Made by a program: the position numbers and the translations under genes. The notes beneath the pieces were generated by a model that saw nothing but the letters and a program-made list of their open reading frames with translations, had not been told where the DNA came from and searched no databases. Shown here in pieces: positions 17,446 through 52,953 of a DNA stretch of 64,000 nt. This DNA comes from Candidatus Synechococcus calcipolaris G9. Lineage in GTDB: Bacteria > Cyanobacteriota > Cyanobacteriia > Thermosynechococcales > Thermosynechococcaceae. How positions within the stretch are numbered: the stretch's first letter is position 1; the number at the start of each line of letters is the position of its first letter. The stretch lies in the NCBI RefSeq assembly GCF_029582805.1, contig NZ_JAKKUT010000002.1, positions 1-64,000 on the forward strand, written 5' to 3'.

Positions 17446-17798
17446 TGTTCATTAGGCAATGAGGATAACAAGGTTTCCAGTTGGGCAAGTAGCGGTTCTA
17501 ACTCTGAGATAACCGTTGTCCAAATCGTTTGTTGGCGAATTTCGTCGTAACGGTGAATCAGGATATTGCGTAACCCAATAATTCTACGCCAGTCAATCTC
17601 TGGATGGGTTTGTCGAAATTCATCCGACAGTCTACGAGCGGCTTCCCCTAAGATTTCAAACTGTCTTTCTACGGCACTCTGGATGAGTGCGCTGTCTAGA
17701 TAAGCCTCATCGGTCAGGCTCGTTGTAAATTCCTGAATCCGGCGAATGGCGCTGACCATATCCCACAGTGATCCAGCATCACGGTTGTTTGCTTGCAT
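17442..17798 (-). CDS. hepT: HepT-like (DUF86) ribonuclease toxin
   Basis: A 118-residue HEPN-fold protein of the DUF86/HepT family. The catalytic RX4HXY motif is intact as RNILIHRY near residue 80, preceded by the usual EILGEAARRLSDEFR helix. HepT toxins cleave or otherwise block RNA and are neutralised by the MntA nucleotidyltransferase, which AMPylates the Tyr of this motif. The mntA-like gene lies immediately upstream and overlaps by 20 bases. Coordinates are the full open frame from its ATG. Confidence 0.9.
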   Translation of the reverse strand: MQANNRDAGSLWDMVSAIRRIQEFTTSLTDEAYLDSALIQSAVERQFEILGEAARRLSDEFRQTHPEIDWRRIIGLRNILIHRYDEIRQQTIWTTVISELEPLLAQLETLLSSLPNEQ

Positions 17799-18129
17799 AG
17801 ATCACCTGATGAGTTCGTAAAATTTCGTGCCGTCGATAGGGATTTTTCAGCCCTTCTTTATCGGCAATATCCACCTTGCGCTTGAATAAGGTTTCAAGTT
17901 CATCTTTCATATCGACCCAATCAAACAAGCTCCAGCCTGGGTTGGGGGCAAAGGTAATGAGAACATCAATATCGCTATCGGGGCGAAAGTCATCCCGCAG
18001 AACGGAACCGAACAGAGCAAACTCGATAATGTGCCAGCGTTGGCAAAACTTAGCAATCTGAGCGGGCGATGCCGGGATGCGTTGATTAATAGGGGGTTTT
18101 AGTTGAGAAATCATGATCCAACACCTCAA
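17779..18129 (-). CDS. mntA: MntA-like nucleotidyltransferase antitoxin
   Basis: A 116-residue minimal nucleotidyltransferase. The signature GSX10DXD is present as FGSVLRDDFRPDSDIDVLITF, which holds the metal-binding aspartates. In HepT-MntA pairs this enzyme silences HepT by adding AMP to its active-site Tyr. The frame opens at 18129, overlapping the PIN toxin's stop by four bases. A second ATG five codons in (18114) has a better ribosome site (GAGG) and may be the true start. Confidence 0.9.
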   Translation of the reverse strand: MRCWIMISQLKPPINQRIPASPAQIAKFCQRWHIIEFALFGSVLRDDFRPDSDIDVLITFAPNPGWSLFDWVDMKDELETLFKRKVDIADKEGLKNPYRRHEILRTHQVIYASKQP

Positions 18130-18539
18130 ATCAGCGGGTTGATAATTCGGAGTTTGCCTTCAATCAGTTGATCATGCTGCATATCTTCGGAGTAAAGAAT
18201 GCTGCAATTGTTCAGTAAAGCTGTGCTGACTAGCAAGCTATCCCAATAGGAATAACCATAACAAACATTAATTTTTATGGCTTCAATTACCTGTGTTGCA
18301 GGAATTTCAGTGATATCAAATCCAGCGACGAGTTGAGAGATAACTTCTTGTGCCTGTGCTTGAGTCCGAAATTTCTTTTTTAGCAGGACATTATAAAGTT
18401 CACCCAAAATTTGAGTACTCATGATTAGAGATTCAATTTGAGATGAAAGCAGTGCGTTAACTTTTTCATACTTGTCTGCTGGGTTTTTGCTATAAAGATA
18501 AACCCAAAGATTTGTATCGAGAAGGACTTTATCGCTCAT
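18126..18539 (-). CDS. vapC: PIN-domain VapC-like toxin
   Basis: A 137-residue PIN-domain nuclease. Conserved acidic positions are visible: Asp8 in LLDTNLWVYLYS, Glu43-type residue in ILGELYNVLL, and the YWDSLLVSTALLNNCSILYSEDM block with two further aspartates. VapC-type toxins cleave tRNA or rRNA. The cognate antitoxin gene lies directly upstream with an 11-base overlap. Its own stop overlaps the MntA start, joining two toxin-antitoxin pairs in one operon. Confidence 0.88.
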   Translation of the reverse strand: MSDKVLLDTNLWVYLYSKNPADKYEKVNALLSSQIESLIMSTQILGELYNVLLKKKFRTQAQAQEVISQLVAGFDITEIPATQVIEAIKINVCYGYSYWDSLLVSTALLNNCSILYSEDMQHDQLIEGKLRIINPLI

Positions 18540-34481: not shown

Positions 34482-35585
34482 TCAAAGTAATTTAGGAACG
34501 TCAACCCATTCAATGTTTTTCTTTAATTCATTACAATGCTTCCATGATAAATATCTATCATGTTGCAATCGTCCAACAACAATTCCCGGAGAAATTCCTA
34601 GATCTGATGAAAAGTTAATGATTGATTCCGTCTGAAGATTACCAAAACTGATAAATCGGGAATAGTGAGCATATGGAATAAGAAAGTTGGCAGCAAAACT
34701 ATCAGCTTCCCTTTCTAACGGATCATCGTGAGCTTCATCGCTCTCAACAAATATAGTTGTTTTCTTTTCCTGTAAGACGTGCTTGCATTCATGAAAAAAA
34801 GTAAACCAGAAATGATCGTCAGATTTGTGACGAAGACTCATTTGAATAATAGGTCTTTTAGAGCTTAACCAACGGGTTACGCCTGAAGCTCTAATACCTG
34901 GGAGAGGAGGAACAAAAATAACAGTAACACCAACCTCAGCACATAAAGTAATAACCTGAGGAATGAATTCAGTTGGAGATAGTCTAGTTAAGTTACGAAT
35001 ATTCTGTAATATGAACTTAAAAGCCTTAGAATCATAAGACTTAATATACCGATCCTGAGCCTCAATTTCCCCTCTTTGTAGCCAAGAGTAAGTAGCTTCG
35101 TGATTAACTTTAAAAGCGTTAGATTTACGATAAGAAATAGATAACTTACTCCAATAAGCTTCAAATTGCTCAGGAGTACTGATTCTAAAAAAATTTAATA
35201 TAATTCGGATACGTTCGACTTTGTCAGGTACATAATTAACCCAACCAAGTTTACACATCTCTCGGTAGGGAAAACGATCAACCCAATCGCTCCATTCACG
35301 TAAACGTTTTTCTTCCTCCTGTCGTGCCAAAAAATCACGATATAGCTGTTCACGATTATTCCAAAAACTAGCAGGAACACCAAGAACACGCTCAAACTGC
35401 AAAGCAGTATCTACCGTAATTACCGCTTTACCATGAATAATTTCATTGATGGTTTTCTTTGGCCGTCCTGTCCGAATTGATAACTCTGCTTGGCTCATGC
35501 CCAATTCCTCAAGCAGTTCGTTCAGTGTTTCACCAGGGGGCGACACATAATTTGGTAAATATTGATTAGGAACTGCACTATTCAT
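34482..35585 (-). CDS. higA: HigA-type antitoxin with ImmA/IrrE peptidase domain
   Basis: A 367-residue protein. Residues 10-70 form an XRE/HigA helix-turn-helix (PPGETLNELLEELGMSQAELSIRTGRPKKTINEI). Residues about 235-310 are an ImmA/IrrE metallopeptidase (FHECKHVL zinc motif, then DDPLEREADSFAANFLIP). Such long antitoxins repress their own operon and may be cleaved or act as proteases. The start overlaps the toxin gene stop by eight bases. Confidence 0.88.
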   Translation of the reverse strand: MNSAVPNQYLPNYVSPPGETLNELLEELGMSQAELSIRTGRPKKTINEIIHGKAVITVDTALQFERVLGVPASFWNNREQLYRDFLARQEEEKRLREWSDWVDRFPYREMCKLGWVNYVPDKVERIRIILNFFRISTPEQFEAYWSKLSISYRKSNAFKVNHEATYSWLQRGEIEAQDRYIKSYDSKAFKFILQNIRNLTRLSPTEFIPQVITLCAEVGVTVIFVPPLPGIRASGVTRWLSSKRPIIQMSLRHKSDDHFWFTFFHECKHVLQEKKTTIFVESDEAHDDPLEREADSFAANFLIPYAHYSRFISFGNLQTESIINFSSDLGISPGIVVGRLQHDRYLSWKHCNELKKNIEWVDVPKLL

Positions 35586-36788: not shown

Positions 36789-39700
36789 TTACGTTAAGGA
36801 TTGCTCTGTTTCGGCAATACTCAAGAGCGTTTTGAGAACGGAATCTGGATTTAGGCTAATGGAATCAATTCCCTGCTCGACGAGAAAGCGAGCAAACTCT
36901 GGATAGTCACTGGGGGCTTGACCACAGATGCCAATTTTGCGGCCCTGAGCTTTAGCGGTTTGAATGGCTTGGGCGACCATCCGCTTGACCCCTTCATTGC
37001 GTTCATCAAAGAGATGGGCCACCAAAGCCGAGTCCCGATCTAAGCCCAGGGTTAACTGGGTCAAGTCATTGGAGCCAATGGAAAAGCCATCAAATACCTG
37101 GGCAAACTCATCCGCCAGCACAACGTTACTGGGCAACTCACACATGACGTAGACCTCTAGGCCATTTTCGCCCCGTTTCAGACCGTGCTTGGCCATCTCC
37201 TCTAGGACGCGGCGACCTTCATTGGGGGTACGGCAGAAGGGAATCATCAAGATTACATTGGTTAAGCCCATTTCATCCCGTACTTTTTTCATAGACTGGC
37301 ACTCTAGAGCAAACCCTTCGGCATACTTCGGATCGTAGTAGCGAGAGGCACCCCGCCAGCCAATCATTGGGTTTTCTTCATGGGGTTCAAACTGTTTCCC
37401 GCCGAGAAGGTTGGCATACTCATTGCTCTTGAAGTCAGACACCCGCACCACCACGGGTTTGGGATAAAAGGCGGCGGCGATCGCCCCAATGCCTTGGGCT
37501 AGTTTATCCACAAAGAAGGCGGCTTTATCAGAATATTGGGCAGTGAGTTCAGCAATTTTGAATTTGGCCCATTCATCTTCAAGGTCATCGAAGTGAAGCA
37601 GAGCTAAGGGGTGGGCCTGAATATGATTAGCAATAATAAATTCAAGCCGGGCCAAGCCCACACCATCATTAGGAATCGCCGATAAGCTAAAGGCCTCTTC
37701 CGGATTACCCACATTCATCAAGATTTGGGTGCGGGTACGGGGTAAATCGTGGAGCGGCACTTCATCGACGTGAAAAGGTAGCAATCCACCGTAGATACGC
37801 CCTTCTTCCCCTTCGGCACAGGAAACCGTCACCTCCTGACCCGTTTTAATCTGTTGAGTTGCATTGTTAGAGCCGACGATCGCCGGAATGCCCATTTCCC
37901 GCGCAATAATCGCAGCGTGACAATTACAAGCGAGGACTGGGGTGTATTTCTCAGTGAACACAACATAATTGTGATGATCGGCAACTGTAATGTTAAAAAC
38001 TTCAGCCGGTTGTAAATCCTCAACTTGAATCACCCGCTGCATCCGAATATCGCCTTGCCGCAGAGACTCAAACTCATTCATTTCTTCTAGGAGTTGTTCT
38101 GAAATTAAATAATTCTGATCTCGACGCAATTTCACTTGACCTACAGCCGTTTCATCAAACAACTGACGGGCAGAAAAAAAGCGAGTTTGAATTGTGCGGG
38201 CGGTCACTTCCCCCTTGACCCGTTGTGTATAGCTCAGGATTTCTGGCAGATTTTCAACAATCTGGATGTTATAGATATTGCGATTGCGCGTAACTTGGGG
38301 AATGGTATTGATCTTCATACAGGCCACGATGATCGCTTGTAAGAGATTCTCCTCAGAAACATAGATATTGATCCGATTGTTGGCATAACACCCATCACCG
38401 TCAATCACGCCCGCCAAAAATTGATGAGCAACCTCTGGAGAACCTTTGAGTAGAAGTGAGACGATGTTTTCTTCGAGTTCTTTCACCTGATACGCGATGG
38501 ATTTGGAATAAAGGCGATAAGCTGTGGCCTGGCCAGTGACTGTTTCCCCCCGAATCACTCCGGTAGATGCTTTTTTCTCATAGGGTGTGAAAGACTTACC
38601 GAAAAGTTTCACCGCTTTAGCCTGCATTGTGGCAATGAAAGCAGCTTTTTCAGGAACATCTTTTTGGATGAATTGCACTTCTCCGTGAGTCCGAGCGTTA
38701 TAGATAGAACCATCCGTAATGATGCCCCCCAGGAAATAGGCTAAATCAGCAGCTTCTTCAGACTGTTTAACTAACTGGGGTATCTTTTGAGCGACGACAA
38801 CCATTTCATTCTGGGCCAGCATTTCTTGGATTTCGGTTTTGACAAACTGACCATTGCGGAGGTTGATCATTTTGTGGTCTGGAGTTAAATGCAAGGTGTT
38901 GTGGGTCATTTTGCCTGTTTGAGAGATACTGACCCCGATCACATGGCTTAGCCGTTTCATGGTGTCAACAATCGGTTTCCATTCAATCTCTTGGGTTTGC
39001 AGATTAAACGAGAGGGTTAACAGTCCTTCACTGCCACGGCCATACACTTCGCTGAGGGTCATAAACCCTTGATTGGTTAAAATCTTGGTATCACCTGTAA
39101 AGCAAGTCCGCCCCCCCTGATCGGTGACGATCGCCCCCGCTTTTTTCATAATCGGTTCCCAGTCAGGATCCGTTCGCCGCGTCACTAGCACTTCACCCGC
39201 TTGGAACTGATCAATCTTGTCCACATCTAAAATGACCCGTGCTTTGCCCTGGCCAATCATTTCACCCACGGCCCGACCTTTGGCTAAAACGTGACCGGAT
39301 GCATCTAGGTGATAGCTGCGTAAAATATTTCCAGCTTTTTGGGACTGCACTGTTTCCGGTCGAGCCTGAACAATAAATAATTCACCCGTGATCCCATCCT
39401 TGGCCCACTCAATATCCATGGGGGTATAGCTGCCGCGAATCGTTGAGTAATGATCTTCAATGGCACAGGCCCAGCGGCCCAAGGTGAGAATTTCGTCATC
39501 GGTGAGGGCAAACTGCTCCCGTAGCTCTTGGGGCACGGATTCATTTCGGGTCAGTTTAGACCCCCCCAAGTCATAGACCATCTTAATTTCTTTAGTGCCG
39601 ACGGATTTTTTCAGAATAGGCTTAAATCCCGCTTTCAACGTGGGCTTAAAGACCAAGTATTCATCGGGGTTGACCGCCCCCTGCACTACGTTTTCCCCCA

Positions 39701-40412
39701 ATCCATAGGCGGCAGTGATCAGGGCCGTATCCTTAAATCCGGTCTCCGTATCAATGGAAAACATCACCCCAGAGCAGGCCAGGTCAGAGCGCACCATTTT
39801 TTGCACCCCCACGGACAGGGCCACATCAAAGTGATCAAACCCCTTAATTTGGCGATAGGAAATGGCGCGATCGGTAAAAAGGGAGGCAAAACAGCGGTGG
39901 CAGGCTTCTAAAACACCTTTGAGACCGTGGACATTTAAGTAGGTTTCCTGTTGACCGGCAAAACTCGCATCGGGTAAATCTTCGGCCGTGGCACTGGAGC
40001 GTACCGCTACATCGGTGTCGGGGCCGTAGCGATCGCACATTTTGCCATAGGCCACGGCGATCGCCTGATTGAGATTCTCGGGAAAAGGAGTTTGTAAAAT
40101 GAGGGTACGAATTTTCTTGCCGATCCTGTGAAGTTCGGATACATCGTCCACATCTAGGCCGGTAAGGGTATCCCGCAACTGTTGATCAATGCCACCCTCA
40201 TGGATAAAACAGCGGAAGGCCTGGGCCGTTGTTGCAAAACCATCGGGCACATTGATCCCCTTAGGAGTCAGTTGTTGGAGCATTTCCCCCAGGGAGGCAT
40301 TTTTACCCCCCACCAAGGGTAAGTCACCCATACCCACGGCATTTAATTCAAGGACAAGGGCCCGATCAGGATGAAGTTCGGGGACAGAAAGAGGATCCAT
40401 AAGGTCTGGCAT
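36789..40412 (-). CDS. ppsA: Phosphoenolpyruvate synthase interrupted by an intein
   Basis: A 1207-residue precursor; without the 394-residue intein the enzyme is 813 residues, normal for PpsA. It converts pyruvate and ATP to phosphoenolpyruvate. The N-terminal PPDK-type ATP domain (GGKNASLGEML, AVRSSATAEDLPDASFAGQQETYLN) precedes the phosphohistidine domain, where GGRT and CHAAIIAREMGIPAIVG are separated by the intein, then the PEP-binding barrel with MCELPSNVV and GSNDLTQLTLG. I start at ATG 40412 (GGAG ribosome site) rather than the TTG 15 bases upstream. The DuOB gene ends 20 bases before. Activity requires protein splicing. Confidence 0.93.
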   Translation of the reverse strand: MPDLMDPLSVPELHPDRALVLELNAVGMGDLPLVGGKNASLGEMLQQLTPKGINVPDGFATTAQAFRCFIHEGGIDQQLRDTLTGLDVDDVSELHRIGKKIRTLILQTPFPENLNQAIAVAYGKMCDRYGPDTDVAVRSSATAEDLPDASFAGQQETYLNVHGLKGVLEACHRCFASLFTDRAISYRQIKGFDHFDVALSVGVQKMVRSDLACSGVMFSIDTETGFKDTALITAAYGLGENVVQGAVNPDEYLVFKPTLKAGFKPILKKSVGTKEIKMVYDLGGSKLTRNESVPQELREQFALTDDEILTLGRWACAIEDHYSTIRGSYTPMDIEWAKDGITGELFIVQARPETVQSQKAGNILRSYHLDASGHVLAKGRAVGEMIGQGKARVILDVDKIDQFQAGEVLVTRRTDPDWEPIMKKAGAIVTDQGGRTCFTGDTKILTNQGFMTLSEVYGRGSEGLLTLSFNLQTQEIEWKPIVDTMKRLSHVIGVSISQTGKMTHNTLHLTPDHKMINLRNGQFVKTEIQEMLAQNEMVVVAQKIPQLVKQSEEAADLAYFLGGIITDGSIYNARTHGEVQFIQKDVPEKAAFIATMQAKAVKLFGKSFTPYEKKASTGVIRGETVTGQATAYRLYSKSIAYQVKELEENIVSLLLKGSPEVAHQFLAGVIDGDGCYANNRINIYVSEENLLQAIIVACMKINTIPQVTRNRNIYNIQIVENLPEILSYTQRVKGEVTARTIQTRFFSARQLFDETAVGQVKLRRDQNYLISEQLLEEMNEFESLRQGDIRMQRVIQVEDLQPAEVFNITVADHHNYVVFTEKYTPVLACNCHAAIIAREMGIPAIVGSNNATQQIKTGQEVTVSCAEGEEGRIYGGLLPFHVDEVPLHDLPRTRTQILMNVGNPEEAFSLSAIPNDGVGLARLEFIIANHIQAHPLALLHFDDLEDEWAKFKIAELTAQYSDKAAFFVDKLAQGIGAIAAAFYPKPVVVRVSDFKSNEYANLLGGKQFEPHEENPMIGWRGASRYYDPKYAEGFALECQSMKKVRDEMGLTNVILMIPFCRTPNEGRRVLEEMAKHGLKRGENGLEVYVMCELPSNVVLADEFAQVFDGFSIGSNDLTQLTLGLDRDSALVAHLFDERNEGVKRMVAQAIQTAKAQGRKIGICGQAPSDYPEFARFLVEQGIDSISLNPDSVLKTLLSIAETEQSLT
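37923..39104 (-). mobile_element. Intein in PpsA with LAGLIDADG homing endonuclease
   Basis: Residues 437-830 of the precursor. It begins CFTGDTKIL (block A, Cys1), has a TxxH block near HLTPDHKM, two dodecapeptide motifs of a LAGLIDADG endonuclease (FLGGIITDGSIYN and FLAGVIDGDGCYA), and ends NYVVFTEKYTPVLACN before Cys+1. The penultimate residue is Cys rather than the usual His. The insertion point is directly before the catalytic His of GGRTCHAAII. Both endonuclease motifs keep their acidic residues, so it may still be a homing element. Confidence 0.93.
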
Positions 40413-40432
40413 AGTTGTTGTCTCCAAAATGA

Positions 40433-41119
40433 TTAGACATCTTTGCTCGAAATTTCAATAACACCTGCGATTAACTTCCAGCACGGATATTCTCCATCCC
40501 AATCAGGAGGGCCCCAAGGCATACCGAGGCTTACCGTGACGAAACAGATGTCTTTAGGCTGGTATCCTGTTTTCAGTTTCTCAACGAACACTGGATCGGT
40601 AATCTTTGCTCCTGCTAAACACCGACCGTTGGAAGCTTCGATCGTACCTCGCCACTCAATATTTCCTTTTGAACTGGTTCTTTTTTCTACAGAAAAATTT
40701 ACAACTTCCACCAGTTGAAGTGTGCGACGTTGCGGAAATGGAAGTTTTTTTAAATAGGAAGGATAAACGTACTTTGATGAATTGTGTAGTATATGTTTAG
40801 AACTGCTACAGTACCTTAACAAATCCGTTGGTTGTGCTTGACCTAAATACTGCCATTGACCGTCTAAAATTGAACGGTTTTCACATTCAAAGCCAAAATC
40901 ATTTCCAGTTTCAGCAAGTGGAACCTGCAAAATATCAAGTAACTTCGGCTCTTGCCCTTCGACAATTCGTACAGATATTGGAACCCGACCATCTTCAGGA
41001 TACAAACGATCACAAACGGGACGAATCCATTTGCCCGTATCAAGATCAATACCAGCAATGCAACGCTCTTCTAACTTCCATGAGTTGGCGAGGCAAACTA
41101 TCCTTTTCAAAGATGGCAT
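40433..41119 (-). CDS. Dual OB-fold (DuOB-like) protein
   Basis: A 228-residue protein with two predicted beta-barrel halves: RIVCLANSWKLEERCIAGIDLDTGKWIRPV at the start and WRGTIEASNGRCLAGAKITDPVF later, ending in GMPWGPPDWDGEYPCWKLIAGVI. This matches the dual-OB family often coded beside DUF488 proteins, which is the case here: its start overlaps the DUF488 gene by 13 bases. OB folds bind nucleic acid, so a role in RNA or DNA handling or conflict is inferred. Confidence 0.72.
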   Translation of the reverse strand: MPSLKRIVCLANSWKLEERCIAGIDLDTGKWIRPVCDRLYPEDGRVPISVRIVEGQEPKLLDILQVPLAETGNDFGFECENRSILDGQWQYLGQAQPTDLLRYCSSSKHILHNSSKYVYPSYLKKLPFPQRRTLQLVEVVNFSVEKRTSSKGNIEWRGTIEASNGRCLAGAKITDPVFVEKLKTGYQPKDICFVTVSLGMPWGPPDWDGEYPCWKLIAGVIEISSKDV

Positions 41120-41562
41120 ATGCTAACATTTCCCCATTTATTATTTAAATATTCAGCAACTAAACGACGATGACAGTGATGAGGTTTGGCCTCACTACAT
41201 AGCAAACAGGCACCATCAGCCAAATCCGGGGAAAGCTTCTTTTCGATTTGACGATCAGCTATCAACTTTAAGAATTTCTGCTCATAAATCGACCAATCCC
41301 CTTTTTGTTTTTTATACTCATCAAGAATATCTTTCGTTGGAGCCAGATCTAAAATATGAACATAATCAATATCATCAATGGTTTTCAGAAAATATTCTAA
41401 GTCTGATCTTTTTGCAAATCCCGATAACTGAGATACATTATTTAGACGAGTGTCAATAACTCGTTTAACACCTGCTTTTTTAAGGGTTTCAAAGAAATTT
41501 TTTGCGCTCTTTTTGGTGAAACCCATTGTGAACAAATTGATCTGATTTTTCATTTTTATCAT
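41107..41562 (-). CDS. DUF488 family protein (short copy)
   Basis: A 151-residue DUF488 protein: NLFTMGFTKKSAKNFFETL, VKRVIDTRLNNVS, FAKRSDLEYFL and the hallmark CSEAKPHHCHRRLVAEYL. The family keeps this C-x(7)-CHR cluster and probably has an enzymatic role, but the reaction is unknown. Its frame overlaps the end of the upstream DUF488 gene by up to 74 bases; the later in-frame ATG at 41553 reduces the overlap slightly. Confidence 0.85.
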   Translation of the reverse strand: MIKMKNQINLFTMGFTKKSAKNFFETLKKAGVKRVIDTRLNNVSQLSGFAKRSDLEYFLKTIDDIDYVHILDLAPTKDILDEYKKQKGDWSIYEQKFLKLIADRQIEKKLSPDLADGACLLCSEAKPHHCHRRLVAEYLNNKWGNVSICHL

Positions 41563-42178
41563 CTCCTTTTTCTATATAAGCAATCTCATCACCCTGAAGT
41601 TTATAAGCTTTTCTTAGGCATTCTTCTCGTGTGGGTAAACCATTTTCCAAAAATAGGGAAAGTTGAGCTTCTTTAGCCTCTAAAAAATCTCTAAAGCCAT
41701 GTTTGAGAAGCATTCTCTCTTCTAAACATTCATGGGATTCTAACTCACCATTCCTTAAAATATGATTGATAGGTATGTTGAGATGACGTAAGTGCTGACA
41801 AATCAAGATTGCTCTGTGACAGGTTAAAGGATCTTTTTCTGCACACATTAGCGTAACTCTATGTTTTTTTAAACCATTCTGAACTCGCTGAATTCCTTCG
41901 TGAAATGCATCTGTGGTAGCAATTTTTTCATATACTGCTCTGCCATCGATATAGCAGTCCTGGTTGCTCGGTCTTGCGCCCAGTTCCCCTCCCAGAAAGA
42001 CATATTGAATTCCTGCTTTTACGAGAGACGCTTGTAAGGACACTTGATTGAATTGTGGCAAAAATCGACTGTAGGGGTATGAACGAACATCAGCAACAGC
42101 AGTTACCCCATGCTTCCGAAGCAAGGAGATGAAAGCATCTATCCCATGATTAGAGTGACCAATACTAAACAACTCCAT
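41489..42178 (-). CDS. DUF488 family protein (long copy)
   Basis: A 229-residue DUF488 protein: LFSIGHSNHGIDAFISLLRKHGVTAVADVRSYPYSR, VFLGGELGARP and the cluster CAEKDPLTCHRAILICQHL. About 90 extra C-terminal residues, charged and helical, distinguish it from the short copy. I start at ATG 42178, which has AAGGAG just upstream, instead of an ATG six codons earlier with no ribosome site. It heads a three-gene cassette with the second DUF488 and the DuOB protein. Confidence 0.85.
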   Translation of the reverse strand: MELFSIGHSNHGIDAFISLLRKHGVTAVADVRSYPYSRFLPQFNQVSLQASLVKAGIQYVFLGGELGARPSNQDCYIDGRAVYEKIATTDAFHEGIQRVQNGLKKHRVTLMCAEKDPLTCHRAILICQHLRHLNIPINHILRNGELESHECLEERMLLKHGFRDFLEAKEAQLSLFLENGLPTREECLRKAYKLQGDEIAYIEKGDDKNEKSDQFVHNGFHQKERKKFL

Positions 42179-42378
42179 ACTGCTCCTTAAATACAATCTA
42201 GTAATTAAGATTGCTTTTATACCACTACTTCTATTGTATGGTTTGGGGAAATCCCTAAGCCGAAGGGTTAACGATAATTTACAGTCATGGGTATAATAAA
42301 TAACTCACCTAATGGCGTAAGCTAGGGTGGCGGGTTTTAGGGCGATCGCCATTTCAGGGATAGCCAGAGGAGTGATTG

Positions 42379-45315: not shown

Positions 45316-45738
45316 ATGACCCAAGTGCGTGTTTCCGTAGCTCTTGCTATTCTCTACCAGGGCGATCGCCTCTTAATGCAACTTCGTGACGACAATCCAG
45401 CCATTCTCTATCCAGGGCATTGGGGCTTATTTGGTGGGCACCTAGAGGTGGGAGAAACTCCCCTAGAGGGTTTACAGCGAGAATTGTCTGAGGAAATTGG
45501 CCATTGTCCAGACCACCTAGAGCCTGTGGGACAGTACAGTGACGATCTAGTGATTCGCCATATTTTTGCCAGTCCCCTGACCGTTGATCTCAGCGAGTTA
45601 GTTCTGGGGGAAGGCTGGGATATGGCTTGGGTGACGGCGGCGGCTGTGCAAAGGGGCTGGAATTACTCTGATCGAGCCGGGGAGGAGCGGCCCCTTGGGG
45701 ACATTCATCGGCGCATTTTAGGGGATTTTTTAACGTGA
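45316..45738 (+). CDS. NUDIX hydrolase
   Basis: A 140-residue NUDIX protein: GHWGLFGGHLEVGETPLEGLQRELSEEIG is the complete Nudix box (Gx5Ex7REUxEExGU). It probably cleaves a nucleoside diphosphate derivative. Its stop codon falls inside the terminal inverted repeat of the adjacent IS982 copy, so the original C-terminus may have been replaced. The protein length is still within the normal range. Confidence 0.88.
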   Translation: MTQVRVSVALAILYQGDRLLMQLRDDNPAILYPGHWGLFGGHLEVGETPLEGLQRELSEEIGHCPDHLEPVGQYSDDLVIRHIFASPLTVDLSELVLGEGWDMAWVTAAAVQRGWNYSDRAGEERPLGDIHRRILGDFLT

Positions 45739-46701
45739 GTTCGGGATAAGAGAGGGGCAGAACAGATAGGCTGAAAGTGCTCAATTCTCATCCCTCTGCT
45801 TGCCCTATGCTTAGTCTAGAAGAGTTATTTTGCTACGTCGATGATTTCTGCCAACAGTTTGAACCGATGTGGCAGCAACAGTTGCTAGGCAATGGACTCG
45901 CTCATCGTAGTCGAAGGCGCAGTTTGTGTCTGAGCGAAATTATGACGATTCTCATCGGCTTCCACCAGTCTTCCTATCGCAATTTCAAAGCTTACTACAC
46001 CGAGAAGGTACACGCTCACTGGTGCTCTGCCTTTCCAGGCTTGGTTAGCTACGGGCGTTTTGTTGAGTGGATACCCAGCACCCTGCTGCCCTTGTGTGCC
46101 TATCTCCGTTCTTGCTTCGGCCACTGTACAGGCATCAGTTTTCTTGATGCCACCAGTCTCAAAGTTTGTCACAACCGTCGCATCCCTCAGCACAAAGTGT
46201 TTAAAAACTTGGCGGCACGCGGTAAAACTTCTGTGGATTGGTTCTTTGGCTTCAAGCTGCATCTGGTGATCAACGACAAAGGAGAGTTGCTCAACTTCAC
46301 CTTCACACCAGGTAACACAGATGACCGTACACCTGTCCCTCAACTGCTGAAACACCTCTTTGGCAAGGTGTTTGCAGACAAGGGCTATATCTCCCAGAAA
46401 TTGGCAAAATAGTTGATGGAGGCAACAGGGATACAACTGATCACGAAGCTACGACGCAACATGAAGAATCGTTTGTTGGGATTGAGCGATCGCTTGATGC
46501 TGAGAAAACGGGCCATTATCGAGACAGTAATTGATCAGTTGAAGAACATTTCTCAAATTGAACACTCTCGTCACCGTTCCCCGATCAATTGCTTAGTGAA
46601 CATTGTCTGTGGGCTAATTGCCTATACTCACCAACCGAAGAAGCCCTCCATTGCCATTGATCACCATTTGCTCACAGTTGCTTAAACCGAACTCACGTTA
46701 A
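45730..46701 (+). mobile_element. IS982-family insertion sequence with 15-base terminal inverted repeats
   Basis: Perfect inverted repeats of TTAACGTGAGTTCGG mark the ends (45730-45744 and 46687-46701) around one transposase gene. The outermost bases could be target site, so the true ends may be a few bases inward. The left end supplies the stop codon of the NUDIX gene and the right end abuts a tRNA-Pro fragment. Confidence 0.85.
45807..46685 (+). pseudogene. IS982 transposase with in-frame stop
   Basis: The frame reads [53 protein letters not shown] and FADKGYIS, then TAG at 46410-46412, and continues in the same frame with [19 protein letters not shown] and [25 protein letters not shown]. 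This is an IS982 transposase of normal total length (about 292 codons) with one nonsense codon, most simply CAG to TAG. The last catalytic Glu (ETVIDQLK) lies beyond the stop, so the element should be dead unless the stop is read through. Confidence 0.9.
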
Positions 46702-46711
46702 TTATGCCCAA

Positions 46712-46770
46712 GTGGCGCAGCGAGATTTAAACCCACGACCCCCGCTCCCAAAGTGGTAATCAAGTCCCTG
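46712..46770 (-). pseudogene. Fragment of a tRNA-Pro gene (3' half)
   Basis: Read on the minus strand this has a T-arm (GTGGG, TTTAAAT loop, CTCGC), a variable region and an anticodon loop TTGGGAG, which match the 3' half of tRNA-Pro. The core at 46724-46757 aligns, with a few mismatches, to the intact tRNA-Pro at 52880-52953 in the same orientation. The D-arm and 5' acceptor are missing. It looks like the far-end copy left by an element that integrated in tRNA-Pro. Confidence 0.65.
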
Positions 46771-47208: not shown

Positions 47209-47734
47209 GGCTCATTAACTCACGCTACTTTGACGATACACCCCATAGGACGACATCGCCCCGTCGCGTAAGCCTGCTTAATGTTCAACACCTTTCATCC
47301 CGCCCGCTCGTGGGGAGGATACTTATGGGACATCCCATAGATTTGCAGTATCAACATTGCACAACATTGTTCAATTTACTAAACCTGTTACTTGAGTAAC
47401 GACTTTTGCAACTTTAGTCGTACTTGGGATCCCTAAAAATTCTATTACATTTATATCGTAATCGGCTCTATCCCTTATATTGCAAGGGATATGGGTTTAC
47501 AATAGGAATATAAATCCGGGAATTTATTATGGCTAAAGTTTTATCCTGAAAATCGGGGTCTGGGAAGTGACCAACCAGGCCATGATCCTCTTTCAAATAT
47601 AAAAATATTCTAAAGAAATTTTGCCTTGAGGATTCCTGAGAATAGGATATGATGGTCTAATTTATTAAAACTTTAGGAAAAAATTAGTCTCATATAAATT
47701 TTCTTGAAAAAGCTCATAAACACATAGGCGAAAA
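47209..47734. other. Regulatory region upstream of the GTPase operon with three inverted repeats
   Basis: No protein gene was seen in these 525 bases. Three inverted repeats stand out: ATGGGACATCCCAT (47325-47338), GTTACTTGAGTAAC (47387-47400) and TATCCCTT/AAGGGATA with a seven-base loop (47469-47491). A further hairpin CGACT/AGTCG lies at 47400-47420. These are candidate operators or leader structures for the operon. Confidence 0.45.
47626..47653 (+). promoter_or_regulatory. Sigma70-type promoter of the GTPase operon
   Basis: TTGAGG (47626-47631), a 16-base spacer and TATGAT (47648-47653) fit a housekeeping promoter. Transcription would start near 47660, giving a leader of about 75 bases. 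Confidence 0.55.
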
Positions 47735-49924
47735 ATGAATCAGGGTAGAGCCGCTCAGGTTGCCAGCATCATTGAGAAAAGAAAACCTTTGGCGGCTGAG
47801 GTGGATAAAGTCATGGGTAATCTCCAGTCCCTGACTTCAGCCTTGAGGCAATTAGAGCAGCACCGAATACAACTATTTTCAGAATCCGATGATCTAGAAA
47901 CCACGGGGCGACTTCAGGAGATCAACCTAACTGCACTTCAAAATGAGATCAGTTCTGAGTTTGCTGTTTTAGGGAAGCTGAAAATTCGCTTTTCTCGGAA
48001 TACGCTTAACATCGGTGTTATTGGCCGGGCGAGGCAGGGTAAAAGCCGACTCCTACAGACACTCTCTGGTTTATCCAGTGCGGAAATTCCATCGGGAGAT
48101 CGCTCTCACTGCACCGGAGTTCGCAGCACCATTCATCACAACCCTGGGGTTAAAACCTATGGGGAAGTCTGGTTCTATTCAGAGCGAGAGTTTCTGAGTG
48201 ATGTCATTGGCCCCTACTATGACAAACTCCAACTTGGGAGCCGCCCTTTTTCGCTGGATAGCTTTGCTCGTACCCCCTTACCCGGACTGCCCGAATCTTT
48301 GCAAGGCATTGCAGAGCTTGGAGCCATGTATGAGCATCTGCGTAAGTATCACAGCAATTTTGATCAATACAAGCATCTGCTCAACGTCATCTCGCCTCAG
48401 CAAATCTCGAAAGAGCAAATTCGAGAATATGTTGCTCAAGACAATGAAGCCGGGGAACGCATCTATTTCAACTATTTAGCGGTTAAGGAGGCCAAAGTCG
48501 TTTGTGGTTTCCCCAATGAGGATGTGGGACAGATAGCACTAATTGATATGCCAGGACTGGGGGATACAGGGTTAGGGGATGCCGAGCGGCTGATGACGAT
48601 TCTGGGGCAGGATGTGGATGTAGTTCTATTTATCCGAATGCCTAAGCCACCGGGGGACTTCTGGGCTGATGTGGATGTGAAGCTTTACGATACGGCCCGT
48701 GCTTCTTTGGTTGATCTACCCATTCATAACTGGGCGTTTATGGTGCTGAATCAAACAGCAGCAAATTCTCTGATTGGGGATAATGCCCGATATTGTGAAG
48801 ATTTGACGAATTCCTTGGCAACGAGCCATATTAATGTTGTTGAGTGCATTACTGCCAGTTGTGCTGATCCTCAACAAGCTAACCAAAAAGTGTTAGATAA
48901 AATCCTTAATTACTTGCTAGAAAATATTACATCTCTTGATAAACGCTATGCCAAAGCCTGCCAAGATAGACTCATTCGCATCCAAAGTGAAGTTCAGATT
49001 GAATTAGAGAAAGCTAAAAAAGCCATGGGGTTTGGCGGACAAAAAGATGGCTGGTTCCCACTATTCATTAAACTCTTTAACCAGCTCTGGGATGACCTAA
49101 CAGGGGGGTTACGAAAGCTGCTGGATAAATTAGAAGAAAGCAGAGACTGCTGTGATGAAGACTTACAAAAACAACTCAAAATAGTTTTAGCATCTGCCCG
49201 ACAAGATACCCGATTTCCTTCAGTTGAACAAATCGAGATTTGTCGAGATAGAGAAGGCGGTTATCCAAATGCTTACTATCGGTATCTTAATGAGGTTAGA
49301 GCTAACCTATCCAGACATTTTTTAAGTTTAGATGATGGACTTAAACGTTCTCTGTATAATATTAAGTCTGAGGTTGCTGAAGTCTTAATTCAAGATGGGC
49401 GAATGGGAAAAATTACTGACGCTAGGGGGACTGAATTTCTCAAAATTATCGAGGCATTAATTCCCGACGAACTTGGTCAACTCAAATTAGGGTTTAACAT
49501 ACTAGCTTCGTTTGAGTTATCCTATCGAGGATTAATTCAACACCGTATTCGTAAAAATCTTGATAGACTTACCCCCGATAAAGCTCCGGTTCAGCTTTCA
49601 GAAACACCATCAGCTAGTGAGATTCATGAGATTTTATCTATCCTATACGAGGAAACCTTGTATGATTCCGAAGAAAGCGTAGAAAAGATTCTTGCCGAAC
49701 CCAGTCAAGCTGCCTATGCCATTGTCGAAGAATTCTTAGATCGAGTCTTAAGGTCTGAAGGGGTTAAAGATGAGTGGCAAATATTTCTAGAGGAAAATCG
49801 CTCAGACATCTGGACATCCGAATTTGAGAAGCTAGGCCAAAATTCTCGACTGAAAAGAGAGTGGTTGAAATCTATAGATGAATCTCTCAGTCGTAATAGA
49901 TTAGATCTAATGCAATTCACATAA
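47735..49924 (+). CDS. Dynamin-like large GTPase of a putative conflict system
   Basis: A 729-residue protein. Residues 1-88 look like coiled coil. The GTPase domain follows with G1 GRARQGKS (97-104), a switch-like SHCTGVRST (124-132) and G3 DMPGLGD (271-277). The G4 element is unusual (VLNQ where T/NKxD is expected). The second half is helical, as in dynamin stalks, with QDKLQ- and KLLDKLEESRD-like heptads. Membrane remodelling or scaffold assembly on GTP hydrolysis is the usual role of such proteins, inferred here. First gene of an operon: 9 bases to the second GTPase. Codon use is more AT-rich than in flanking genes. Confidence 0.75.
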   Translation: MNQGRAAQVASIIEKRKPLAAEVDKVMGNLQSLTSALRQLEQHRIQLFSESDDLETTGRLQEINLTALQNEISSEFAVLGKLKIRFSRNTLNIGVIGRARQGKSRLLQTLSGLSSAEIPSGDRSHCTGVRSTIHHNPGVKTYGEVWFYSEREFLSDVIGPYYDKLQLGSRPFSLDSFARTPLPGLPESLQGIAELGAMYEHLRKYHSNFDQYKHLLNVISPQQISKEQIREYVAQDNEAGERIYFNYLAVKEAKVVCGFPNEDVGQIALIDMPGLGDTGLGDAERLMTILGQDVDVVLFIRMPKPPGDFWADVDVKLYDTARASLVDLPIHNWAFMVLNQTAANSLIGDNARYCEDLTNSLATSHINVVECITASCADPQQANQKVLDKILNYLLENITSLDKRYAKACQDRLIRIQSEVQIELEKAKKAMGFGGQKDGWFPLFIKLFNQLWDDLTGGLRKLLDKLEESRDCCDEDLQKQLKIVLASARQDTRFPSVEQIEICRDREGGYPNAYYRYLNEVRANLSRHFLSLDDGLKRSLYNIKSEVAEVLIQDGRMGKITDARGTEFLKIIEALIPDELGQLKLGFNILASFELSYRGLIQHRIRKNLDRLTPDKAPVQLSETPSASEIHEILSILYEETLYDSEESVEKILAEPSQAAYAIVEEFLDRVLRSEGVKDEWQIFLEENRSDIWTSEFEKLGQNSRLKREWLKSIDESLSRNRLDLMQFT

Positions 49925-49933
49925 AGGATAAAT

Positions 49934-50977
49934 ATGCACGAACTGAAAATTACAATGTTAGGAGCAAGTGGAGTAGGTAAAACGACTCTACTAACATCGA
50001 TGTATGAACAATTTATTAATTCAGTAATAAATCAAGGTATTGAATTAGACCTTCAGCCTGACATCTTAACCTCAAGAATATTGCAAGATAAATTGATCGA
50101 GTTAAAAAACCTTACCTCACAGTTTTCAGTTAAGGGTGGAATTCAAGGAACAGAAGATGACAAGATTTATAAATTCAGAGTTGGAAGAAAGGGAGAGAAA
50201 CCATCTCTCGAATTGAAATTTTGTGACTATCCAGGAAGGTATCATACGTCAGAGAACTTTGATCATCATCAATTTATTCTTAAGCAGTTAGTAGATTGTG
50301 TTGCGGTTTTGTTGGCAATCGATTCGCCTGCCTTAATGGAAAGAGATGGTCACTGGCACGATCAATTTAATCGTCCCCAACAAATTAGAGATTTGTTTGC
50401 TGAAGCTTATGCAGGGTTAGATTCTCCTCGGCTAATTATCATGGCTCCTGTTCGTTGTGAAAAGTATATGCAAACTGAAAGATCGGCTAGAGATTTCGTA
50501 TATAGAATCAAAGAGAAGTACTCACCATTACTTAATCTTTTTTCATCAAATTCTATTGATTCAAATTTAGCTGTTGTCATTTTGCCGGTTCAAACTGTTG
50601 GTGGTGTTATTTTCTCTCGTATTGAGATGTATGATGAGTTCCCAGTTTTTAAATTTAGAAAAGCATCTCCTAGTTCTGAATATGCTCCTAAAGACAGCGA
50701 TCAGCCTTTACGCTACTTAATGCGTTTCTTGTTAATGCTTCATCTCTCTCAAAGAAAGTGGAAGATACCTAATGAAGGAATCAGCGATAACATCAATGAC
50801 TATATTCGTACTTTGTTTAATATTGATTTTAATATAAATCAAATTATTGATGGAATTCGGCAAGTTTTCAAAAGTGATTCACACTTAACTTCTGCAATCG
50901 ATCACTATTCTCAGGGCTGTAAAAGTTCTGGTGCATTTGAAATTATTCAAGGACATCACTTATTAGATCGTTATTAG
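49934..50977 (+). CDS. Second small GTPase of the same system (TRAFAC type)
   Basis: A 347-residue P-loop protein. G1 is GASGVGKTT (10-18) directly at the N-terminus, G3 is the FCDYPGRY segment near residue 97, and hydrophobic strands such as CVAVLLAIDSPAL and PRLIIMAPVRC fit the central sheet. No NKxD motif is evident. It resembles the smaller partner of paired-GTPase conflict modules. The AAGGA ribosome site and 9-base spacing show that it is co-translated with the dynamin-like gene; the third gene's ATG begins 14 bases after its stop. Confidence 0.75.
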   Translation: MHELKITMLGASGVGKTTLLTSMYEQFINSVINQGIELDLQPDILTSRILQDKLIELKNLTSQFSVKGGIQGTEDDKIYKFRVGRKGEKPSLELKFCDYPGRYHTSENFDHHQFILKQLVDCVAVLLAIDSPALMERDGHWHDQFNRPQQIRDLFAEAYAGLDSPRLIIMAPVRCEKYMQTERSARDFVYRIKEKYSPLLNLFSSNSIDSNLAVVILPVQTVGGVIFSRIEMYDEFPVFKFRKASPSSEYAPKDSDQPLRYLMRFLLMLHLSQRKWKIPNEGISDNINDYIRTLFNIDFNINQIIDGIRQVFKSDSHLTSAIDHYSQGCKSSGAFEIIQGHHLLDRY

Positions 50978-50991
50978 TATTGGAGTCATTT

Positions 50992-51921
50992 ATGCAAGTT
51001 TACGTAAAAAGCAGAGGCTTTACACCTGAATCTGATTACTCATGGCTGCCATCTGATCCTCCAGATGTTGCAAATTATAAGTCTTATATCGATAGTGAAT
51101 ACCCATCATTGATCTTATATTCCTTTGATAATCGTCTAGCCTTATTAGTCACAGGTAGTGAGTCAGATCGAGAAGATTTTCGTGGTCGTAAGATCAGAAA
51201 TTCAGTTTTATGGATTTCAGAGAGTAATGGTCATGAAGATGAAAAAATGTTGAGGGCTATTGCTTGTGAATTTCTCGATAATTATTTGGCCGGTAAATTA
51301 AATCAGATAATTTGCAAAGATGAGAAAGTTTCTAATCCTGGCTTTACTTTTGACCAAGAACGTTTGCTCAATATTGTTAGCATGGATAGATTAGATTCAA
51401 TCCAATCTAATCCCTTAAGTAAGGATGAACTAAAGGCTAAGTATGCAACTAACACTCCAAGGTTAAAGAGTGATCTTTCCAACCTAGTACGAGAGTATGA
51501 ATTGCCCAAAAATGGCATTTTAAAATTTCTAGTGGTGACGGGAAAAGTTGAGGAGAGTAAGATAAAGGATCCATCTGTATGGAGAAGTTTATCTACCGAA
51601 ATTTCTGATTCTAGATGGCAACTCAAAAAAAAAAACAGGGATCCCAGCCTCAGTGCTTCTTATCACCTCAGTTGCTCTAATCCTTCTACTACTGATAATA
51701 ATGTGGAAGAAATGATACCTAATCCTATTGATTTTGTGTTATCTAAAACGGATATTGATATAGCTCGCTTTGTCTTTGAGTGCCAAAATCTACATGATAA
51801 AGTCAATTCAGGAAATAGGTTATCTGATTACGATAAGATAATAATTAAAGCTGCCGAGAAGAAATTAAATCATTTCCTTAATGAAATTAATGATATAAAG
51901 CGGCGTGATTCAGAGAACTAA
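50992..51921 (+). CDS. Third protein of the GTPase operon; frame depends on an A11 run
   Basis: The straight reading gives 309 residues from ATG 50992 (GGAG ribosome site; a TTG at 50980 is rejected). The first 211 residues look genuine (QVYVKSRGFTPESDYSWLPS, SDREDFRGRKIRNSVLW) but match no family I know. After the adenine run at 51625-51635 this frame turns into Ser/Asn-rich sequence that looks out of frame. One base less in the run gives instead a hydrophobic helix (SVLLITSVALILLLLIIM) and a stop at 51713-51715, that is, a 240-residue tail-anchored membrane protein. The residues from 51712 on are then a separate small gene. I think the short membrane form is the main product. Confidence 0.6.
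   Translation: MQVYVKSRGFTPESDYSWLPSDPPDVANYKSYIDSEYPSLILYSFDNRLALLVTGSESDREDFRGRKIRNSVLWISESNGHEDEKMLRAIACEFLDNYLAGKLNQIICKDEKVSNPGFTFDQERLLNIVSMDRLDSIQSNPLSKDELKAKYATNTPRLKSDLSNLVREYELPKNGILKFLVVTGKVEESKIKDPSVWRSLSTEISDSRWQLKKKNRDPSLSASYHLSCSNPSTTDNNVEEMIPNPIDFVLSKTDIDIARFVFECQNLHDKVNSGNRLSDYDKIIIKAAEKKLNHFLNEINDIKRRDSEN
51625..51635 (+). repeat. Eleven-adenine run, candidate slippage site
   Basis: A homopolymer of 11 A's inside the third gene of the GTPase operon. It is long enough for polymerase slippage in transcription or replication, and equally a classic place for a sequencing or assembly indel. Frame change by minus one base yields the membrane-anchored product. Confidence 0.85.
51712..51921 (+). 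CDS. Possible fourth gene of the GTPase operon (69 residues)
   Basis: If the third gene ends with its membrane helix at TGA 51713-51715, an ATG at 51712 overlaps that stop as ATGA, the usual sign of translational coupling. The 69-residue product is helical and charged (DIDIARFVFECQNLHDKV, KAAEKKLNHFLNEINDI). No known domain. Alternatively it is simply the C-terminus of a fused third protein when the A-run is read straight. Confidence 0.45.
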   Translation: MIPNPIDFVLSKTDIDIARFVFECQNLHDKVNSGNRLSDYDKIIIKAAEKKLNHFLNEINDIKRRDSEN

Positions 51922-52199
51922 AAAAATGACGATTATTTCCAAATAGAATGGATAGGTATGAATCGACAATGAAACCCTAAAAGCCTTGCAGGGTATAGGT
52001 TTTGACGCTTACATGAATAAAGAGCCAGATTTGCATAGCCTCTAGGTGGGTGCTGGAATGATTGGGAAAATATTCCATCATGGAAAAAACAACGCTCAAA
52101 AGACACCCTTACAACCAAATCCCCTTCTGAATGGCTGGAACCCTTTGAGGGAGGGGCTTTTACCCTTACAACTAACTAGGGCATGGGGCGTGGGGTATG
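51922..52199. other. Non-coding stretch between the GTPase operon and an IS remnant
   Basis: No intact gene. The phrase ACCCTTACAAC occurs twice as a direct repeat (near 52103 and 52164) around a GC-richer segment. It may be debris of the IS630-type element that follows. Confidence 0.35.
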
Positions 52200-52412
52200 T
52201 CGATGGCAATGGAGAGCGTTCAGCGATCACAGCGGACTCAAGAGTTAATTGAACAGGCTGGATGCACCCTGTTATTTTTGCCGCCTTACTCCCCTGACTT
52301 AAATATGATAGAGAAATTTTGGGCACAGTTAAAGCAGTGTTTGGGTCAGAACCTGAATCGGTTTGATCTCTTGTGGGATGCCGTGGATGAAGCTTTCAGG
52401 TATATGTCCTAA
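52200..52412 (+). pseudogene. IS630-family transposase C-terminal remnant
   Basis: The stretch from about 52217 reads RSQRTQELIEQAGCTLLFLP, then PYSPDLNMIEKFWAQLKQCL, which is the C-terminal DDE block (with the catalytic Glu) of an IS630 transposase. The expected upstream DNASxHRS sequence can be found only by shifting frame one base, and the N-terminal two thirds are missing. Dead fragment. Confidence 0.8.
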
Positions 52413-52879: not shown

Positions 52880-52953
52880 TCGGAGCGGCGGGATTTGAAC
52901 CCACGACCCCCACTACCCCAAAGTGGTGCGCTACCAAGCTGCGCTACGCCCCG
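52880..52953 (-). tRNA. trnP: tRNA-Pro (GGG)
   Basis: A 74-nucleotide cloverleaf. Acceptor CGGGGCG pairs with CGCTCCG (one G-U), D-arm GCGCAGCTTGGTAGCGC, anticodon arm CCACT-TTGGGGT-AGTGG with anticodon GGG, T-arm GTGGG-TTCAAAT-CCCGC, discriminator A. The CCA end is not encoded. Its 3' end faces the GTPase island; a degenerate copy of that 3' half lies at 46712-46770. Confidence 0.95.

What the first reader, a model, noticed from the sequence alone, without database searches (positions are those of the whole stretch)
47626..51921. Paired-GTPase operon: candidate membrane-linked defence system
A dynamin-like GTPase (G1 at 97-104, G3 at 271-277), a small TRAFAC-like GTPase and a probable tail-anchored third protein are encoded with gaps of 9 and 14 bases behind one good promoter. 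They differ in codon/base use from flanking core genes and lie on a tRNA-flanked segment with IS debris. Established: multi-GTPase modules are known among bacterial conflict systems. The specific three- or four-gene set and its function are inferred. The G4 motif of the large GTPase is atypical (VLNQ).
Basis: partly seen in the sequence, partly recalled or inferred. Interest (0 to 1): 0.8.

Follow-up and report, generated by a model that had tools for sequence, protein, structure and literature searches.

The report
Dynamin operon with frame-switched membrane anchor
This is a mobile three-gene cyanobacterial cassette (a membrane-remodelling dynamin-like GTPase, a small switch GTPase and a third protein) in which a run of A bases in the third gene seems to decide whether that protein is tied to the membrane or left soluble; it may be an anti-virus or membrane-stress device, but that use is unproven.

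Summary
The operon is real and conserved. A dynamin-like protein (g1), a DO-GTPase2-like small GTPase (g2) and a protein with a longin-like cytosolic domain plus one membrane segment (g3) occur in this order across Cyanobacteriota, on plasmids and in actinobacteria. The g3 profile hits 100 of 388 genomes of one order, and g2 was adjacent in all 30 hit loci read. In the window the operon lies on a ~6.2 kb segment between tRNA-Pro and a degraded copy of its 3' half.

An A11 tract (51625-51635) puts the membrane segment in the +1 frame, while frame 0 runs into the putative "fourth gene". This is a family feature: 31 of 91 homologues carry A9 or longer at that spot (15 expected), and after the tract the -1 frame (relative to the anchor) stays open past the anchor-frame stop in 23 of 31 (7.4 expected; +1 frame 0). 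In 19 of 20 copies that have it, a conserved helical domain lies in that -1 frame, often without a usable start codon. I infer programmed frameshifting or transcriptional slippage giving anchored and soluble g3.

Defence function is plausible but unproven: known defence genes are not visibly enriched among neighbours. New variant of a known kind.

The parts
46714..46760 (-). degenerate direct repeat of the 3' half of tRNA-Pro, probable left end of the inserted segment
   Evidence: 85% over 46 nt to 52882-52927, E 3.3e-7; no other match of this quality in the genome
47735..49924 (+). g1: bacterial dynamin-like GTPase, 729 aa
   Evidence: Dynamin_N in 31/32 family members; AF2 model pLDDT 89; Foldseek SynDLP E 6e-12, BDLP 8e-12; VIA mitofusin-1 Z 21.3
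49934..50977 (+). g2: DO-GTPase2-like TRAFAC small GTPase, 347 aa
   Evidence: PF19993 in 30/32 family members, best E 8e-13; window E 6e-5, below the curated cut-off
50992..51633 (+). g3 cytosolic domain, longin-like fold, about 214 aa; starts at ATG 50992 with GGAG upstream
   Evidence: conserved in 109 distinct copies; AF2 pLDDT 91; weak longin matches
51625..51635 (+). A11 frame-switch tract, the only A run of 8 or more in the 64 kb window
   Evidence: family enrichment
51635..51715 (+). transmembrane tail TGIPASVLLITSVALILLLLIIMWKK*, in the +1 frame relative to g3
   Evidence: hydropathy 2.96; in the g3 frame in 83 of 91 homologues
51636..51921 (+). alternative C-terminus (helical domain) in frame 0 of the window; ATG at 51712 overlaps the TGA of the anchor frame, so it could also be read as a 69-aa gene
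   Evidence: matches the domain found in the -1 frame (relative to the anchor) of 19 of 20 copies; window E 3e-16 in the iterated profile
52197..52412 (+). transposase remnant (DDE_3)
   Evidence: PF13358 E 1.4e-12
52880..52953 (-). intact tRNA-Pro(ggg), right end of the inserted segment
   Evidence: ARAGORN

Best explanation
The operon is a horizontally mobile membrane-linked GTPase module. SHOWN by comparison: g1 (dynamin-like), g2 (DO-GTPase2-like switch) and g3 form a conserved ordered trio, and g3 has two alternative C-termini in overlapping frames behind a poly-A tract. INFERRED: transcriptional slippage at A9-A11 and/or -1 ribosomal slippage on A AAA AAA makes two g3 isoforms, one anchored in the membrane (longin-like domain plus TM) and one soluble (longin-like domain plus helical domain). 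In A9 homologues the unslipped product is the anchored one. In the window, A11 makes the soluble fusion the unslipped product, so the anchor needs loss of one A or gain of two. The longin-like domain probably binds or regulates the g2 GTPase, and the ratio of the two isoforms sets how much g2/g1 is recruited to the membrane, where the dynamin-like protein remodels, seals or breaches it. The likely trigger is phage infection or membrane damage (inferred, about 50% for defence).
For: Trio: in most of about 42 g1 loci g2 and g3 follow with short gaps, and g2 is next to g3 in 30/30 loci found by g3 alone. Sporadic: 29/386 genomes of the phylum, 2/29 of the family, 100/388 of one order; 10 plasmid-collection records including Nonomuraea and Streptomyces. 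tRNA-bounded segment. Folds. Frame switch: A>=9 tract in 31/91 against 15.0 +- 2.6 from synonymous shuffling (0 of 1000 shuffles reach it), length sharply 9 (28 of 31), in 18 of 50 sequence clusters; for 25 loci, only 1 such run in 95 kb of g1, g2 and g3-N. -1 frame open past the anchor-frame stop in 23/31 tract copies against 7.4 +- 1.4 (16/23 against 1.5 for anchor-frame tails of 40 codons or more; +1 frame 0/31), 15 of 18 tract clusters, Fisher p 2e-6 against copies without tract. Helical domain in the -1 frame in 19/20 copies; in L051, L188, L189, L190, L193 and L208 no ATG/GTG/TTG in that frame before codon 63-94. Runs of 9 A or T are known to make bacterial RNA polymerase slip efficiently in vivo (PMC5009743).
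Against: No expression data; no isoform has been seen. The window's A11 would not yield the anchored form by plain -1 ribosomal shifting, so the break could be a homopolymer assembly error or a single-base mutation. About two thirds of the homologues with a clear TM lack an A9 tract. The longin match is weak (Z 5.0, 4.7 A over 129 residues). The neighbourhood gives no statistical support for defence, and in one genus the locus is vertically conserved.
Confidence: 0.68

Rival explanations
1. Three or four ordinary genes: g3 is tail-anchored and g4 is a separate small gene translated from its own start. The A11 in the window is an assembly error or a fresh one-base insertion.
For: In the window an ATG (51712) overlaps the anchor-frame TGA, and L055 has an ATG at the start of the domain; homopolymers are error-prone; 83 of 91 homologues keep the anchor in the g3 frame.
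Against: The -1 frame is open right up to the tract in 23 of 31 tract copies (7.4 expected), and several copies lack any start codon before the domain. A9 is favoured at this spot beyond codon choice.
Confidence: 0.2
2. Phase-variable gene: replication slippage at the A tract switches g3 on and off the membrane between cells of a population rather than within each cell.
For: Three genomes have the anchor out of frame behind the tract (window A11, L068 A10, L215 A9).
Against: A9 is short for high-rate replication slippage, and tract length is tightly fixed at 9 in 28 of 31, unlike contingency loci. Both frames are maintained open.
Confidence: 0.15
3. A house-keeping or stress membrane-remodelling module of cyanobacteria (envelope or thylakoid), not a defence system.
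For: Other cyanobacterial dynamin-like proteins are discussed in membrane dynamics (PMC5827413, PMC10104851); conserved locus in genus g33; no visible defence-gene enrichment among neighbours.
Against: Present in 29/386 genomes of the phylum and 2/29 of the family, on plasmids, on a tRNA-bounded segment and in actinobacteria; variable C-termini and accessory genes.
Confidence: 0.4
4. A DO-GTPase/GAP1 conflict system that has swapped GAP1 for g3 and uses the dynamin-like protein as membrane effector.
For: g2 belongs to DO-GTPase2; the published systems also combine constant GTPase cores with variable, often membrane-bound parts (PMC7159879); L011 and L072 carry a g2-like gene followed by a ~1000-aa gene and a ~490-aa gene.
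Against: No GAP1 similarity in g3 and no GAP1-M in this genome; the ~1000-aa proteins have no GAP1 Pfam hit, and one of them shows no relation to g3.
Confidence: 0.4

Closest known systems
DO-GTPase/GAP1 GTPase-centric conflict systems (Kaur et al. 2020, PMC7159879)
   Same: g2 falls in the DO-GTPase2 family; two GTPases in one operon; a membrane-linked, variable third component
   Different: no GAP1; the partner GTPase is a dynamin-like protein, not a paralogous DO-GTPase; the paper's main text does not contain the word dynamin
Bacterial dynamin-like proteins: SynDLP, BDLP1, IniA, Cj-DLP1/2, LeoABC, B. subtilis DynA
   Same: g1 fold and GTPase domain; DynA gives phage resistance at population level (PMC8844932); most bacterial DLPs are encoded in pairs (PMC6104087)
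   Different: only one DLP here, paired with a small DO-GTPase-like protein and an anchored longin-like protein; G4 is (V)LNxT
dnaX gamma/tau and copA type frameshift genes
   Same: A-rich slippery site; two products with a common N-terminus; A9 slippage in Thermus dnaX (PMC5009743, PMC3711429)
   Different: here the switch exchanges a membrane anchor for a soluble helical domain
Longin-domain GTPase regulators and longin SNAREs (FLCN/FNIP, NPRL2, TRAPP, VAMP7, Sec22b)
   Same: top fold matches of the g3 domain; longin domain plus C-terminal membrane anchor is the VAMP7/Sec22b topology
   Different: Z about 5 only, no sequence similarity; likely an analogy of fold

Membership tests
bacterial dynamin-like protein (g1) | dynamin-type GTPase domain with G1 and G3 | tested here: met
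   G97-S104 and D271-G276 conserved; Dynamin_N in 31/32 members, best E 1.6e-11
bacterial dynamin-like protein (g1) | long helical neck/trunk around the G domain | tested here: met
   model and Foldseek SynDLP 6e-12, BDLP 8e-12; mitofusin-1 Z 21.3
bacterial dynamin-like protein (g1) | membrane binding and GTP-driven oligomerisation | not testable with these tools
   biochemistry needed
paired-DLP operons (Cj-DLP1/2, LeoABC) | two adjacent dynamin-like genes | tested here: not met
   g2 is a 347-aa DO-GTPase2-like protein without dynamin similarity
DO-GTPase/GAP1 conflict system | DO-GTPase family GTPase | tested here: met
   PF19993 in 30/32 members at E below 1e-3; the window member itself is below the curated cut-off
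DO-GTPase/GAP1 conflict system | GAP1 protein encoded with it | tested here: not met
   no GAP1 Pfam hit reported for 29 g3 members; no GAP1-M in the genome at E 1e-3
DO-GTPase/GAP1 conflict system | GASH or FNIII partner and variable effectors | tested here: inconclusive
   variable C-termini (WD40, coiled coil) and an AAA-VWA gene in some loci; no GASH or FNIII hits among the proteins scanned
known anti-phage system | match to a described defence model | tested here: not met
   PADLOC best hits LeoBC E 0.029, VakA E 0.0065, none for g3
programmed frameshift / slippage gene (g3) | conserved slippery tract beyond amino-acid demand | tested here: met
   31/91 against 15.0 +- 2.6, length peak at 9
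programmed frameshift / slippage gene (g3) | conserved open second frame encoding a domain | tested here: met
   23/31 against 7.4; domain in the -1 frame in 19/20 copies
programmed frameshift / slippage gene (g3) | both products made in the cell | not testable with these tools
   needs RNA and protein data
longin-domain proteins (g3 N-domain) | longin fold | tested here: inconclusive
   top VIA hits are longin domains but Z is only 3-5
tRNA-bounded genomic island | tRNA gene and a 3'-end repeat flanking the segment | tested here: met
   46714-46760 against 52880-52953
tRNA-bounded genomic island | integrase or empty site in a close relative | tested here: inconclusive
   no integrase in the segment; no member of the same genus held, and tRNA-Pro is not next to the flanking gene in relatives

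The most novel reading that the evidence does not exclude
Bacteria use a poly-A slippery tract to divide one adaptor protein of a dynamin-GTPase module between a membrane-anchored and a soluble isoform with different C-terminal domains, a built-in switch or ratio-setter for membrane recruitment in a mobile immune-like system.
Probability: 0.6. Interest if true: 0.85.

Novelty: new variant of a known kind. Interest (0 to 1): 0.74.

Why it matters
It links three themes that are usually separate: dynamin-like membrane remodelling, DO-GTPase conflict systems and programmed frameshifting. If right, a genome-encoded A tract sets the split between anchored and soluble adaptor, which is directly testable by recoding a few codons. 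Standard gene callers would miss the second isoform and report a broken gene or a spurious fourth gene. The module is common (about a quarter of the genomes sampled in one cyanobacterial order), yet the papers found here do not describe it.

Tried and rejected
Viral origin: the g1 profile found no relative in viral contigs, and the viral fold library gave nothing significant for g3. GAP1 identity of g3: no Pfam hit, no profile match to the ~1000-aa third gene of L072. Known defence models: none. Defence-island enrichment: 134 neighbouring proteins, no PADLOC model in more than two (no background control was run). 'Good promoter': not better than shuffled sequence. Synteny of flanks with relatives: the flanking genes lie far apart there, so no empty site could be shown. 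Pairwise identity of the two overlapping frames between close relatives is uninformative because all frames look conserved; only the diverged pair L057/L051 separates -1 (z 5.8) from +1 (z 0.9).
Full report
Observation. The three ORFs are present as stated. g1 is 47735-49924, g2 49934-50977, and g3 best starts at ATG 50992 behind GGAG. g2 and g3 have GC3 of 0.27-0.28 against 0.47-0.57 for flanking genes. The reported promoter is a 9/12 match, and such matches are fewer here than in shuffled sequence.

Insertion. To the right lies an intact tRNA-Pro. To the left, at 46714-46760, lies a degraded copy of its 3' half (85% over 46 nt, E 3e-7, no comparable copy elsewhere in the genome). The ~6.2 kb between them holds the operon, a DDE_3 transposase remnant and small ORFs. 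No integrase is present. In relatives of the same family the flanking core genes are elsewhere and no tRNA lies beside the flanking gene, so the empty site could not be shown.

What g1 is. 31 of 32 family members hit Dynamin_N (best 1.6e-11). A model with pLDDT 89 matches SynDLP (Foldseek 6e-12), BDLP, IniA and mitofusin-1 (VIA Z 21.3, 5.2 A over 337 residues). The odd G4 (VLNQ) is a family trait: N339 is invariant.

What g2 is. 30 of 32 members hit DO-GTPase2 (PF19993, best 8e-13). It is the only such protein found in this genome. DO-GTPases were defined in GTPase-centric conflict systems (PMC7159879), whose second constant part, GAP1, is missing here.

What g3 is. All but a few homologues have a ~200-aa cytosolic domain, a single membrane segment and a variable tail: none, coiled coil, or WD40-like repeats. 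The domain model (pLDDT 91) has longin domains as its best matches (Lokiarchaeal longin Z 5.0, then FLCN/FNIP, GATOR1, VAMP7, TRAPP). This is weak, but these are mostly regulators of small GTPases, and longin plus tail anchor is the VAMP7/Sec22b layout.

Linkage and spread. The g1 protein finds 3 of 58 relatives (the window's own genome included) and 29 of 386 genomes of the phylum, and 10 records of the plasmid collection, two of them actinobacterial. g2 and g3 follow g1 with short gaps in most loci. A search with g3 alone finds 100 of 388 genomes of one order, and in all 30 loci read g2 is next to it, with g1 visible in 25 of these short loci. In genus g33 the operon sits at the same place beside the same genes in four species. 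Some loci add a fourth gene with AAA and/or VWA domains (L007, L066, L073), and two (L011, L072) replace g3 by a ~1000-aa gene and a ~490-aa gene.

The frame switch. In the window the membrane segment follows an A11 tract in the +1 frame, and frame 0 continues for about 94 codons. I collected 109 distinct g3 copies, 91 of them with a clear membrane segment. 31 of 91 have A9 or longer between the domain and the membrane segment; synonymous shuffling expects 15.0 +- 2.6, and 0 of 1000 shuffles reached 31. 28 of the 31 are exactly A9, and they fall in 18 of 50 clusters at 60% identity. The usual context is (C/G)AA AAA AAA ACN. In g1, g2 and the g3 domain of 25 loci there is one such run in 95 kb. 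In the window the tract is the only A run of 8 or more in 64 kb.

After the tract the -1 frame (relative to the anchor) is open past the anchor-frame stop in 23 of 31 copies (7.4 +- 1.4 expected by shuffling codons). For anchor-frame tails of 40 codons or more it is 16 of 23 against 1.5. The +1 frame is open in none. Copies without the tract show this in 16 of 69 (Fisher p 2e-6), and 15 of 18 tract clusters show it; relatedness is only partly corrected by clustering. A conserved helical domain was found by an iterated profile in 20 copies, 19 times in the -1 frame. In L051, L188, L189, L190, L193 and L208 that frame has no ATG, GTG or TTG before codon 63-94, so the domain can hardly be a separate gene there. 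L019 and L194 lack A9 but have A AAT TTT and A AAA AAG, in phase, just before the anchor. In another cluster (c0) the site is A AAA AAG with a -1 stop after one or two codons, as in E. coli dnaX.

Mechanism. Runs of 9 A or T make bacterial RNA polymerase slip with high efficiency in vivo, and Thermus dnaX uses this (PMC5009743; PMC3711429). I therefore infer two g3 isoforms from one gene. In A9 homologues the unslipped product is anchored. In the window A11 makes the soluble fusion the unslipped product, and the anchored form needs an A10 or A13 transcript. An assembly error of one base in the window cannot be excluded, but it would not touch the family-level result. That g3 regulates g2 and recruits g1 is inference from folds and linkage.

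Function. For defence: sporadic and mobile distribution, DO-GTPase2 membership, variable parts, DynA as a phage-resistance dynamin (PMC8844932), and other candidate defence genes in the same window (DRT UG19 reverse transcriptase; PDC-M45 A-C). Against: no visible enrichment of PADLOC models among 134 neighbours, vertical inheritance in one genus, no direct match. I put defence at about 50%, with membrane stress repair or remodelling next.

Novelty. The papers found here do not describe a dynamin plus DO-GTPase plus longin-like anchored protein module, nor a frame switch in it. Many subscription papers are not held. I rate it a new variant of a known kind.

Noticed in passing
window 19073-21154 (-): AT-rich (29% GC) reverse transcriptase of the DRT class UG19 (PADLOC E 3e-178), a candidate anti-phage RT.
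   Followed up: partly
window 40433-42196 (-): Three adjacent genes match the candidate defence set PDC-M45 A, C and B (E 4e-27, 1e-70, 2e-73), about 5.5 kb from the operon.
   Followed up: partly
window 36789-40427 (-): PEP synthase-like gene interrupted by an intein (PF14890 E 5e-9).
   Followed up: no
window 34482-35585 (-): HTH plus ImmA/IrrE-like protein matching PD-Lambda-2_B (E 4e-38) in an AT-rich stretch near tRNA-Trp.
   Followed up: no
window 17442-18539 (-): Small-gene cluster that looks like toxin-antitoxin genes; the 116-aa member matches PDC-S09 (E 1.6e-25), the other two have no PADLOC hit. HEPN/MNT and PIN identities are by eye only.
   Followed up: no
window 45730-46701: IS with 21-nt inverted ends and a DDE_Tnp_1_3 transposase split by an in-frame stop, next to the left tRNA repeat.
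   Followed up: partly
L015 3125-4835 (-): Nostoc plasmid with two adjacent DO-GTPase-like genes divergent from the dynamin-like gene: a true double-GTPase version.
   Followed up: no
L176, L178, L179, L183, L184, L186, L192 (g3 copies, cluster c0): A AAA AAG with a -1 stop within one or two codons (L183 one) before the anchor, as in E. coli dnaX: would give a soluble truncated g3.
   Followed up: partly
L007, L066, L073: Fourth gene directly behind g3 encoding an AAA ATPase and/or VWA-like protein (shared C-terminal part), a possible variable partner.
   Followed up: partly
L061, L069, L076, L008: Other genes or transposons have inserted inside the operon of several relatives; in L069 a transposase-like gene lies between the g3 domain and its membrane segment.
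   Followed up: no
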